64,000 nucleotides of DNA, from positions 1 to 64,000 of the forward strand of contig CALLPI010000026.1 in NCBI GenBank assembly GCA_938015595.1, read 5' to 3'. Within the stretch, counting starts at the first letter, position 1. Every line of letters starts with the position of its first letter. The position numbers and the translations under genes are program-made. This stretch comes from an uncultured Saprospiraceae bacterium (lineage in GTDB: Bacteria > Bacteroidota > Bacteroidia > Chitinophagales > Saprospiraceae). The notes beneath the pieces are model-generated. The model was not told the DNA's origin. It saw only the letters and a program-made list of their open reading frames with translations, and searched no databases. Shown here one piece after another: positions 9 to 33,815 of the stretch.

Positions 9-121
<113 letters not shown>

Positions 122-190
122 TTTTTTAGACTTTAGTACAAAGTGCCGATGGCACCATCCATGTATAATGCAATGTAATGTGCTGCGGTG

Positions 191-908: not shown

Positions 909-1379
909 TTAGTCGTTGTCGTCGTAACGAGACTTGCGGTCGTAGCGATCGCTGCTACCGTAGCGGTTGCTGCTACCGTAGCGATCGGTGCTACCGTAGC
1001 GATCGCTGCTACCGTAGCGATTGCCGCCGCCATAGCTGCCACCGCCGCGATTGCCGCTGCCGTAGCCACCGCCGCGATTACCACTACCATAACCGCCACC
1101 GCCGCGATTGCTGCTGCCGTAGCCGCCGCTGTTGCGTGGGCGGTCTTCGGCTTCCTTCACTACAATGGTGCTGCCATCCAACTCGGATTCGTTGAGATTG
1201 GAAATGGCTGAACGAGCCTCGTCATCATTAGGCATTTCCACGAAGCCAAAGCCTTTAGAACGGTTGGTGGCGTGGTCCATGATAACCTTTGCGGAACTTA
1301 CCTCGCCGAAAGCTTCGAATGCAGAGCGTAGCCCTTCGCTTTCGGTTTTGAAGTTCAACTTTGCAACAAAAATGTTCAT
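909..1379 (-). CDS. RRM-domain RNA-binding protein with Gly/Arg-rich tail
   Basis: 156 aa. Residues 1 to about 80 form one RNA recognition motif: RNP2 is IFVAKL near the start and RNP1 is KGFGFVEM. The rest is a low-complexity tail of Gly/Ser/Asn/Arg units (YGSGNRGGG type), then YGSSDR-type units and an acidic end (YDDND). Proteins of this kind in Bacteroidota and cyanobacteria bind single-stranded RNA and are often cold-induced; this role is inferred. The ATG at 1379 is chosen because the RRM begins there at once. The frame stays open up to 1574 but the extra N-terminus is not RRM-like and lies within the leader that follows the promoter at 1577-1608. Confidence 0.93.
   Translation of the reverse strand: MNIFVAKLNFKTESEGLRSAFEAFGEVSSAKVIMDHATNRSKGFGFVEMPNDDEARSAISNLNESELDGSTIVVKEAEDRPRNSGGYGSSNRGGGGYGSGNRGGGYGSGNRGGGSYGGGNRYGSSDRYGSTDRYGSSNRYGSSDRYDRKSRYDDND
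941..1128 (-). repeat. In-frame tandem repeats encoding the RRM protein tail
   Basis: Four 18-bp units with the core CGTAGCGATCGCTGCTAC run head to tail from 941 to 1012, each coding a six-residue YGSS(D/N)R-type unit. From about 1013 to 1128 they pass into longer Gly-rich units. All changes keep the reading frame. The DNA-level similarity suggests recent expansion by slippage or recombination. Confidence 0.85.
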
Positions 1380-31720: not shown

Positions 31721-33175
31721 TTAATTATCCCTTAACACCCGTTTGGCATTTCGGTTGAAGTTGTCGAGGATGTCATTGCCGTCAATGGGGTTGCTGTCCC
31801 ATTCGGCGGGGGCGTGGCGATAGAGTTCTCGAATCCACTGAGGGTTCTGACGCTCGCCAATAGCCTCGGAGTGCAGGAGCACGTAGTCGCCCGGTGCCAG
31901 GGAGGGGTTGTAGAAAATAAACTTGACGTTGTTTTGGCTGGTGGCCGGAAACTGGTAGTACGACCAGATTTCGTAGGGTGGGGCGGAGGGTTCCTGTTCG
32001 CGGGTTTCCACGTCGTCGGGAGCGCCGTATTTGAGATAGATATATCCTCGGTCGGTTTCAAAGCCACGCCGGAAGCCGGAGATGAAGGCTTGATCTACGG
32101 CTTCCACTACTTTCATGTAGCGCCGGTAGGCCATTTCAGGAGCGTTGGGATGCTGGGAGGCCCAGTAGCTAAATAGGTATCGGCGCTGGGCTTGGAGGCT
32201 GTCGCTTTTGATGAGGGCATTGAGGGCCTCCTGCGCTTTGCCGGGCAACTTGGGGGTGAGGGCGCGCAGGCTGGTGCGCAGTTCATCGGCGCTGAGGGTG
32301 GCTACAAATTCTTCGTCGAGATTGACTTGGCTGAGGTCCAGTGCGTTCATGCGCAGAAAGGGGTTCTCCCTGCGGAAAGTAACGCTGCGCATGCTGAGCA
32401 ATTCCTGCAGGCGGTTTCGGATTTCCACCACCAGGCGATACTCTCCGTCAGGCAGAGTGCTGATATCCATTTGCAACAGAAAGGGCTGTACTTGGGCTGG
32501 GGGGCGTCGTTTGTGTGCGATCAACCCTGTAGGTTTGGCTGAAGCCTCCATTAATTCGATGCGATAGCTGAGCAGGAAGTCGTCGCCGGGCCACACATCC
32601 GTATCATACACCTCGTGATAAAACAGCAATGTGCTGGCGTGCTTGCCATAGGTGCGTTGAGTCAGGGGCTCCATAAAAAAGCCGTTTTTGCAAAAAGCGC
32701 AGGCACTGCTGTCGGGGCGCGCCATGGCCAGTAGCTGGATGTCAGACTGAAGGACGCAAGGGCCTTCTGCCGCCGGCAGTTCAATCGGGAGCTCTAGTAC
32801 CGTAGCCGGAGCATCGGGGCGGCGCAAGTCGCGCAGTTCTATGGTGAGTGTCTGGGCTTGTGGTGGCAAGGTGTATCGCTTCACGTCCACAAAGTCGGCA
32901 GGGCGGGGCACGATCGGGCTGTGCAGGGCAAATTTATCGTAGCGCAGAATCTGTTCCTGATGTTTGAAATAGAGGATTACCTCCACCGAAGCCTGGCTTC
33001 TGTCTGTGCCGGCTACGGGTTCGAATTGTACTGATTGGCCAGCAATACGCAAGCAAAGCTCAGCATAGGGGCTGCGCTCACTTTTGAACAGGCTTAGCGA
33101 CGCGTCGGCCTGCACTGCATAGCCGCATACGGCCAGGTAGCAAAGCCCCCACAAGGTGATTGGTATGGATTTCAT
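31721..33175 (-). CDS. Exported GWxTD-domain protein (variant motif)
   Basis: 484 aa with a signal peptide (MKSIPITLWGLCYLAVCGYA). The C-terminal third is a GWxTD domain: FRRGFETDRGYIYLKYG, where the motif Gly-Trp-x-Thr-Asp reads Gly-Phe-Glu-Thr-Asp, then PDDVETRE and YEIWSYYQF. The role of this Bacteroidota/Acidobacteriota domain is unknown; it occurs in secreted or periplasmic proteins. The middle of the protein looks like beta-sandwich material. Probably co-transcribed with the rhodanese gene. Confidence 0.85.
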   Translation of the reverse strand: MKSIPITLWGLCYLAVCGYAVQADASLSLFKSERSPYAELCLRIAGQSVQFEPVAGTDRSQASVEVILYFKHQEQILRYDKFALHSPIVPRPADFVDVKRYTLPPQAQTLTIELRDLRRPDAPATVLELPIELPAAEGPCVLQSDIQLLAMARPDSSACAFCKNGFFMEPLTQRTYGKHASTLLFYHEVYDTDVWPGDDFLLSYRIELMEASAKPTGLIAHKRRPPAQVQPFLLQMDISTLPDGEYRLVVEIRNRLQELLSMRSVTFRRENPFLRMNALDLSQVNLDEEFVATLSADELRTSLRALTPKLPGKAQEALNALIKSDSLQAQRRYLFSYWASQHPNAPEMAYRRYMKVVEAVDQAFISGFRRGFETDRGYIYLKYGAPDDVETREQEPSAPPYEIWSYYQFPATSQNNVKFIFYNPSLAPGDYVLLHSEAIGERQNPQWIRELYRHAPAEWDSNPIDGNDILDNFNRNAKRVLRDN

Positions 33176-33430: not shown

Positions 33431-33460
33431 TTGATGTTTCAACATACTATTCTACTTTTG
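33431..33460 (+). promoter_or_regulatory. Consensus promoter of a candidate small RNA
   Basis: TTG (33431-33433), 19 nt, TACTTTTG (33453-33460): a full match to the Bacteroidota promoter. No protein gene follows for almost 700 nt, but an intrinsic terminator lies 95 nt downstream. Confidence 0.7.
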
Positions 33461-33464
33461 CAGT

Positions 33465-33588
33465 ATTATGCAAGATAAAACCTATGCTTGCCTATTGGCA
33501 AGGCTACTGAGATAGCGAAAAATTGTTTTCATTTGGTTTTTTGGGGTTATACAAGAGGCAATTCAACGAGGGATTGCCTCCTTTTTTT
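33465..33588 (+). ncRNA. Candidate structured small RNA, about 125 nt
   Basis: The segment lies between a consensus promoter (33431-33460) and an intrinsic terminator (33555-33588). It folds on paper as follows: AAAACC (33477-33482) pairs with GGTTTT (33535-33540), enclosing two adjacent hairpins, CTTGCC-TATT-GGCAAG (33487-33502) and GCTA-CTGAGA-TAGC (33503-33516), then the terminator hairpin. No start codon opens a useful frame. The family is not recognised; 6S-like or a trans-acting regulator are open options. It sits in the 960-nt gap between the GWxTD gene and mreB, which holds no convincing protein gene. Confidence 0.5.
33555..33588 (+). terminator. Intrinsic terminator of the candidate small RNA
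   Basis: GAGGCAAT (33555-33562) pairs with ATTGCCTC (33573-33580), loop of 10 nt, then a C and seven T (33582-33588). Confidence 0.85.
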
Positions 33589-33815
33589 GGAGAGGTTGAT
33601 TTAGTCTCTATTGGAACACCGCAGTTCCTTTACTAGGAGAAAGACGCCATTTCACAAGTTGACCCCAATAATTGGTTATTTACCGGCTTCCGAACTTCCT
33701 GTTGGCGCCAATTAGTTTTCCATATAAGAGGCGATGTAAGAGACAGTGCGTTTTGAATCAACAGCGCGCTGTGCCTCATCAGGTTGGGGTTAGGGCTATC
33801 GTCGAAAAGAAAATA

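What the first reader, a model, noticed from the sequence alone, without database searches (positions are those of the whole stretch)
33431..33588. Candidate new small RNA between the GWxTD gene and mreB
Seen: a full consensus promoter (TTG-N19-TACTTTTG), about 125 nt with two tight hairpins enclosed by an AAAACC/GGTTTT helix, and a strong intrinsic terminator, in a 960-nt region without a protein gene. This is the complete signature of a free-standing small RNA. I cannot place it in a known family; its size and multibranch fold allow a 6S-like or regulatory role.
Basis: partly seen in the sequence, partly recalled or inferred. Interest (0 to 1): 0.62.

Follow-up and report, generated by a model that had tools for sequence, protein, structure and literature searches.

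The report
Family-wide Saprospiraceae small RNA, phage-borne too
The spot holds what looks like a real small-RNA gene whose 24-letter heart and terminator recur almost unchanged across a family of environmental bacteria and in some viral contigs, often behind what looks like a stress promoter, so it is probably a widespread regulator for which we found no name.

Summary
Promoter TTG-N19-TACTTTTG (33431-33460) and terminator (33555-33588) are there. The two hairpins and their enclosing helix are not conserved, even in two species of the same genus at the same locus. Conserved instead is a G/U-rich core, 33522-33552 (ATTG-TTTTCATTTGGTTTTTTGGGGTTA-TAC), followed at once by the terminator hairpin. 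The core (<=3 mismatches) is in 291 of 398 genomes of the family; 67 of 80 listed public records with it are titled Saprospiraceae or members of it. Copies number one to several per genome, sometimes in tandem; 172 of 179 have a terminator right after the core. No Rfam family matches. Beyond the finding: (1) about a third of host copies (56 of 173) sit behind an ECF-sigma-type promoter, TGTGACY-N14/15-CGTCTTA, which also precedes MscS channels, outer-membrane proteins, an ECF sigma gene and other putative sRNAs; the window copy has the ordinary Bacteroidota promoter; (2) 21 viral contigs carry the core, mostly with a terminator. Most likely a trans-acting antisense sRNA working like Bacteroides FopS. 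Target evidence is weak; homology to FopS is not supported.

The parts
33431..33460 (+). Promoter: TTG (33431-33433), 19-nt spacer, TACTTTTG (33453-33460), Bacteroidota housekeeping type
   Evidence: Sequence. TACTTTTG or TACATTTG aligned at the same place in two congeners. TANNTTTG enriched upstream of copies lacking the ECF-type promoter: 44 of 117, shuffled 15.7 +- 3.4.
33466..33588 (+). Predicted transcript, about 123 nt (start inferred, a few nt after the -7 box)
   Evidence: Inference from promoter and terminator; fold of exactly this stretch.
33487..33516 (+). Two small hairpins (33487-33502 and 33503-33516), specific to this species
   Evidence: First hairpin stable in the fold (pair probability 0.94-1.0); not conserved in two congeners.
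33522..33552 (+). Conserved core ATTG-TTTTCATTTGGTTTTTTGGGGTTA-TAC; the near-invariant 24 nt are 33526-33549
   Evidence: 291 of 398 family genomes at <=3 mismatches; 20 invariant columns in 75 chosen copies. Model R2 (built from copies including this one) finds 33518-33588 at E 5e-12.
33555..33588 (+). Intrinsic terminator hairpin and U-tract, directly after the core
   Evidence: In 172 of 179 copies a hairpin plus T-run starts within 12 nt after the core (shuffled 36 of 895). The 6 outer stem pairs covary (89.6% of cells paired; 34-53% when slid; 5 of 6 pairs with changes on both sides).
31721..33175 (-). Divergent neighbour: GWxTD-domain protein
   Evidence: PF20094, 42.0 bits
34139..35170 (+). 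Downstream neighbour: mreB; same neighbour in congeners G001 and G002
   Evidence: PF06723, 408.9 bits; protein cluster F8

Best explanation
33466-33588 encodes a small RNA of a Saprospiraceae-wide family. SHOWN by comparison: the unit under selection is a G/U-rich 24-31-nt core plus the terminator hairpin that follows; the 5' part is free to vary; copies lie outside protein genes, most often divergent from radA (here upstream of mreB), are sometimes multiplied or tandem, and occur in viral contigs. About a third of host copies lie behind an ECF-sigma-type promoter shared with MscS channels, outer-membrane proteins, an ECF sigma gene and other putative sRNAs; many others, like this one, have the housekeeping promoter. 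INFERRED: the core is a seed that pairs in trans with A/C-rich translation starts (its complement reads ..CCCCAAAAAACCAAATGAAAAC..) and lowers translation, probably of envelope proteins under envelope or osmotic stress; the terminator hairpin and U-tail stabilise the RNA. In this species control would be by the housekeeping sigma factor.
For: Conservation of core and terminator. Context: in 18 of the 30 loci a protein of one family lies divergent, 84 to 1042 nt upstream; one of them scanned is RadA. Two promoter classes: ECF-type in 56 of 173 host copies (five array loci count one promoter twice); strict form 36 of 169 vs 18 of 5625 background windows, spacer only 14 or 15 among 10-19 tried. 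TANNTTTG in 44 of 117 other copies (shuffled 15.7) but 7 of 56 ECF copies (shuffled 9.5). Regulon: 115 exact promoter sites vs 24 backward controls in 199 genomes; of 102 sites read, 18 precede the core and 25 an ORF; 19 of those 25 were scanned: MscS in 4 plus one MscS-helix protein, an ECF sigma, OmpA, an OMP barrel, a START protein. Seed at translation starts: 27 TonB-receptor starts in G103, -12.5 vs shuffles -10.9 +- 0.6, 0 of 100 as low; internal regions 21 of 100; family starts (500 of 619), 2 of 40 shuffles as low, start-minus-internal 0 of 40. Apart from the sRNA itself, the only perfect 14-nt complement in the window's genome lies on the start codon of a TonB receptor.
Against: No transcript seen. 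Target signal is weak and partly generic (A-rich starts): strong duplexes are not in excess (<=-20 kcal/mol 4 vs 4.7 in shuffles, <=-22 0 vs 1.2). In the window's genome 31 TonB-receptor starts (the preselected perfect-match gene included) give -12.6, 1.3 SD below shuffles, no better than the reversed core (-12.5) or 42 other window genes (-13.4). Of 30 family loci with a 14-nt perfect complement, 3 have a long frame from that ATG. About 31% of copies read CAATTGG, which breaks pairing with the A of AUG. The core is not clearly single-stranded in predictions (mean unpaired probability about 0.2-0.66). 107 of 398 family genomes lack a match. 27 of 102 ECF-type sites have nothing recognised downstream, and other scanned ORFs are not envelope-specific: thioredoxin, two HTH regulators, M1 peptidase, DUF1573, two sorting-tail proteins, three without a family over its cut-off.
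Confidence: 0.5

Rival explanations
1. The core plus hairpin is mainly a protein-binding element (for example for an RRM-domain protein or another RNA chaperone). The RNA acts as scaffold or sponge; tandem copies act like a CsrB-type multi-site sponge, and phages carry it to titrate the protein.
For: The 24-nt near-invariance exceeds a usual multi-target seed (recalled); no long complementary target in the window's genome (13 sites at <=3 mismatches, the sRNA itself included, vs 9 backward controls); tandem core-hairpin units that by eye lack promoters of their own in L120 and L166; viral copies in unrelated 5' contexts keep only core plus hairpin; the RRM protein RbpB binds the FopS sRNAs (passages of PMC11697453); RRM_1 proteins in 48 of 60 relatives, one in this window.
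Against: RRM_1 proteins also occur in 15 of 23 order-level genomes without the core (33 of 37 in the family), and G011 and G021 have the core without a detected RRM_1. No binding data.
Confidence: 0.3
2. A transcript-3'-end module: the core is an accessory element of a family-specific terminator or processing signal rather than part of a regulatory RNA.
For: Core beside a hairpin in 172 of 179 copies with T-run; within 600 nt after tRNA or tRNA-like genes in 6 of 22 viral loci, three of which are near-identical.
Against: Only one to a few copies per genome, far fewer than a genome's terminators (recalled); 0 of 204 host copies follow a tRNA within 600 nt; many copies have a promoter of their own.
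Confidence: 0.1
3. A 6S-like RNA.
For: Roughly fitting size (123 nt).
Against: No Rfam 6S match even at E<=10; multicopy and tandem; 5' part not conserved. The 6S-Flavo search of relatives was uninformative.
Confidence: 0.03

Closest known systems
FopS sRNAs of Bacteroides thetaiotaomicron (PMC11697453; abstract and passages seen)
   Same: Multicopy sRNAs of one Bacteroidota family, mostly intergenic (9 of 14); housekeeping promoter in FopS and in this copy; conserved seed region; also reported in a phage; seed containing UUUUCAU, complementary to AUGAAAA starts.
   Different: No sequence similarity beyond chance (local 43%, global 61% of shuffles as good); one to several copies instead of 12-15; G/U-rich core directly before the terminator; many copies have ECF-type promoters; target class not shown.
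Enterobacterial sigmaE-dependent sRNAs MicA, RybB, MicL (recalled)
   Same: sRNAs in an ECF envelope-stress regulon together with envelope genes, for about a third of copies.
   Different: Different phylum and sequence; no Hfq dependence shown; the window copy has a housekeeping promoter; targets unproven.
GcvB (recalled)
   Same: G/U-rich conserved seed pairing with C/A-rich mRNA sites near translation starts.
   Different: Here the seed abuts the terminator; no homology tested.
CsrB/RsmZ-type protein sponges (recalled)
   Same: Tandem repeated core-plus-hairpin units in some loci.
   Different: Most copies seen are single; no binding protein known; CsrA-type motifs not tested.

Membership tests
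FopS | Sequence match to the R1' seed (35-nt consensus) | tested here: not met
   local score 8 (43% of 2000 shuffles as good), global 5 (61%).
FopS | 12-15 paralogs per genome in Bacteroidaceae | tested here: not met
   Different family; one to several copies per genome; one in the window's genome.
FopS | Repression of SusC-like transporters through their translation start | tested here: inconclusive
   No signal in G000, signal in G103, weak general signal.
FopS | Binding by an RRM protein (RbpB) | not testable with these tools
   An RRM_1 gene is in the window but binding cannot be tested.
ECF/sigmaE-dependent envelope-stress sRNA | ECF-type promoter | tested here: not met
   Not met by the window copy (TACTTTTG; 0 exact ECF-type sites in G000). 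Met by 56 of 173 host copies of the family.
ECF/sigmaE-dependent envelope-stress sRNA | Shared regulon with envelope genes and the sigma gene | tested here: met
   For the promoter class, not the window copy: MscS (4 of 19 scanned ORF sites), OmpA, OMP barrel and an ECF sigma behind the same motif; use of the motif by a sigma factor not tested.
6S RNA | Rfam covariance-model match | tested here: not met
   none.
Any Rfam 15 family | Score over gathering threshold | tested here: not met
   only 5S rRNA at 9-122 in the whole window.
Small protein gene | Conserved reading frame through the core | tested here: not met
   ATG-to-stop ORF through the core in 7, 5 and 9 of 173 copies by frame.

The most novel reading that the evidence does not exclude
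Saprospiraceae have an envelope-stress sRNA regulon driven by an ECF sigma factor, whose hub RNA carries a 24-nt near-invariant core recognised by an unknown RNA chaperone or a fixed set of mRNAs; their phages carry exact copies of the host core with its terminator, alone or behind tRNA genes, to enter this host circuit; tandem copies act as sponges.
Probability: 0.25. Interest if true: 0.82.

Novelty: new member of a known kind. Interest (0 to 1): 0.62.

Why it matters
Post-transcriptional control in Bacteroidota outside the genus Bacteroides is, as far as I recall, little studied. A family-wide sRNA with a fixed core, viral copies and an ECF-type promoter in a third of copies gives a concrete, testable entry: which sigma factor, which partner, which mRNAs. 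A full-text search for three stretches of the core found 0 papers in the held library; of 134 papers holding at least three of the terms Saprospiraceae, small RNA, Bacteroidetes and noncoding RNA, none of the 15 listed mentions Saprospiraceae (listing only).

Tried and rejected
Simple start-codon antisense rule: 14-nt exact complements (pattern DCAAAAAACCAAATG) in 150 genomes gave 53 sites against 19 backward controls; of the 30 loci read only L235 (501 aa), L226 (219) and L212 (149, maybe in-frame internal) have a long frame from that ATG, and L215 is itself an sRNA variant; rejected as a general rule. The perfect site on a TonB-receptor start in G000 may therefore be chance.

TonB-receptor targeting in G000: no convincing enrichment. 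rRNA or other long complement in G000: nothing at <=3 mismatches in 18 nt clearly beyond controls.

Homology to FopS and a small peptide: not supported. Relatives outside the family: in 296 phylum genomes, 13 genomes outside the family had weak model hits (E 1e-4 to 1e-2) beside 6 family genomes with E <=5e-7 (257 of the unmatched genomes are not listed in the answer); the alignments shown have a U-rich stretch and mostly a terminator with partial core; not accepted. Named phages and plasmids: listed rows have E >=0.7 and >=2, no record covers 80% of the query, 25 and 109 further records not listed. RNAalifold on A2 chose a 5-pair helix between core GGGGU and the terminator 3' arm without two-sided changes; I replaced it by the hairpin seen by eye. 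6S-Flavo search uninformative.

Dropped rows: two weak hits (G007, G027; E about 0.005) do not look like the core. One search left out one of 180 copies (too little sequence); one search used 75 of 135 non-redundant copies, without several array units and odd terminators. energies used 500 of 619 starts; one search used 27 of 30 fetched of 33 Plug matches; one search used 30 fetched of 38 plus the perfect-match gene. One search read 102 sites: those of the 11 genomes (chosen because their sRNA copy has the motif) and most of the 115, the left-out ones including several known to precede the core. Pfam scanned 19 of the 25 ORF sites (not L353, L354, L384, L422, L428, L429) plus L397. Three notebook figures are superseded by this report: about 117 vs 25 sites (115 vs 24), 'all named ones Saprospiraceae' (67 of 80) and '20 ORFs' (19 plus L397).

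Full report
WHAT IS THERE. The promoter TTG-N19-TACTTTTG (33431-33460) and the terminator (33555-33588) exist as described; the fold is better than shuffles. Nothing in Rfam matches: over the gathering scores only a 5S rRNA in the window, and at E<=10 in the intergenic region only sub-threshold hits that I take as chance. The segment lies between a divergent GWxTD-domain gene and mreB. The predicted RNA is 33466-33588, about 123 nt; the start is inferred.

WHAT IS CONSERVED. A search with 33431-33600 hit 29 of 60 relatives: 29 of the 37 family genomes (27 at E <=3e-6; two at about 0.005 that do not look like the core) and 0 of 23 other genomes of the order. At the same mreB locus in two congeners the -7 box (one letter differs in one) and the block from ATTG to the U-tract are conserved, and the 50-60 nt between them are not. 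The enclosing helix AAAACC/GGTTTT has pair probabilities of 0.40-0.59 in this sequence alone, and AAAACC lies upstream of 9 of 173 host copies (shuffled 4.5 +- 2.1).

FAMILY. The 25-nt core with at most 3 mismatches is in 291 of 398 genomes of the family, 90 of 112 genera; the backward control rang in 7 genomes (my count of its table). Of 179 copies, 172 have a hairpin and T-run starting within 12 nt after the core (shuffled 36 of 895), and the stem covaries. The core has 20 invariant columns in 75 chosen copies; one position is T in 69% and A in 31% of 180 copies (3 of them viral). These copies were found with core patterns, so invariance inside the pattern is partly by selection; the flanking ATTG and TAC columns are not. 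Arrays with 87-94-nt periods exist. In 18 of the 30 loci the copy is divergent from a protein of one family (one member named RadA); in 6 of 30 a DksA/TraR-like gene faces it from downstream (DksA models below their cut-offs), and ScpB-like genes follow in 6. In the window's genus it is upstream of mreB.

PROMOTERS. Upstream of 169 host copies with at least 200 nt, TGTGAC[CT]-N14/15-CGTCTTA occurs in 36 (strict) or 56 (loose), against 18 and 49 of 5625 background windows. Counts are sequences, not independent events: related species recur, and five array loci count one promoter twice. TANNTTTG is enriched only in the copies without it (44 of 117 vs 15.7 expected; ECF copies 7 of 56 vs 9.5). 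The exact ECF-type motif is rare: 115 sites in 199 genomes, 24 for the backward control. Of 102 sites read, 18 precede the core, 25 an ORF of 80 aa or more within 250 nt, 32 a terminator within 200 nt with neither, and 27 nothing. For terminators, 32 of 84 non-core sites compare with 76 of 929 noncoding control positions; no such control was run for ORFs. Of 19 ORF sites scanned, four are MscS channels, one an MscS-helix protein, one an ECF sigma factor (70.6 bits to TIGR02937, cut-off 42.9), and others OmpA, an OMP barrel, START, DUF1573, thioredoxin, two HTH regulators, M1 peptidase, two sorting-tail proteins; three (L403, L357, L420) have no family over its cut-off; an acyltransferase (L397) lies behind a terminator. 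That this is an ECF promoter is inferred from its form and from these genes; the usual ECF layout is recalled. The window's genome has no exact site.

VIRAL CONTIGS. A 19-nt core occurs in 22 stretches of 21 IMG/VR contigs, some near-identical, and L303/L306 of one contig may show one site. Of the 22, 18 have a terminator directly after it and 4 a hairpin without T-run. Six of 22 (three near-identical) have a tRNA or tRNA-like gene within 600 nt upstream, against 0 of 204 host copies. L209 and L211 hold terminase large-subunit genes (285.7 and 142.2 bits), so these two at least are phage. TANNTTTG lies 15-60 nt upstream in 6 of 19 distinct viral copies (shuffled 0.34), which would give RNAs of core plus terminator with a short leader. 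FopS was also reported in a Caudovirales phage. Hosts of these contigs are not known; Saprospiraceae is inferred.

HOW IT MAY WORK. The complement of the core reads as an A/C-rich translation start with AUGAAAA. Tests: no convincing TonB-receptor signal in G000; a signal in G103, 0 of 100 shuffles as low, internal regions 21 of 100; a modest general signal over 500 of 619 starts, 2 of 40 shuffles as low and 0 of 40 for start minus internal, but no excess of the strongest duplexes; few 14-nt perfect sites at ORF starts. I commit to trans-acting antisense control of translation at about 0.5, with protein binding at 0.3. The stress link holds for the ECF-promoter third of copies and is extended to the window copy only by the shared core.

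COMPARISON. It works most like FopS (passages seen) and the sigmaE sRNAs (recalled), but it is not a FopS member: the sequence test fails, and copy number and clade differ. It is not 6S by Rfam.

VERDICT. A well-supported sRNA gene family for which I found no name; ordinary in kind, unusual in the strictness of its core, its ECF-type promoters and its viral copies.

Noticed in passing
window 909-1379 (-): RRM_1 RNA-binding protein with a Gly/Arg/Tyr/Ser-rich tail, 156 aa, on the same contig as the sRNA; RbpB of Bacteroides is also an RRM-1 protein.
   Followed up: partly
L360 (G079:C1:318091-318564): Three ECF-type promoters in tandem, each followed by about 70 nt holding AAGGTTTTCATGATATGAATATGGGTTTTAGG and a terminator: a different candidate sRNA family in the same apparent regulon, also with UUUUCAU.
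   Followed up: no
L347/L348, L350/L351, L363/L364: Further ECF-type promoters followed by terminators without ORF or core, similar between two genomes of one genus each: other candidate sRNAs of the regulon.
   Followed up: partly
L308, L316, L318: Viral tRNA-like gene with an odd 4-base anticodon call (ataa) ending 13 nt before TTCA of the core; the three loci are near-identical.
   Followed up: no
L209:3826-3990: tRNA-like T-arm (GGGTTCGATTCCC) directly upstream of the core in a viral contig, not called by ARAGORN, downstream of a terminase gene.
   Followed up: no
L061 (G000:C18:25351-25364): Perfect 14-nt complement of the core on the start codon of a TonB-dependent receptor gene in the window's genome; could be chance.
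   Followed up: yes
L013 (G030:C38:33921-34130): RRM_1 gene about 0.5 kb upstream of the sRNA copy, between it and radA; seen in this one genome among those compared.
   Followed up: partly
window 9-122 (+): 5S rRNA at the very start of the window (97.4 bits).
   Followed up: no
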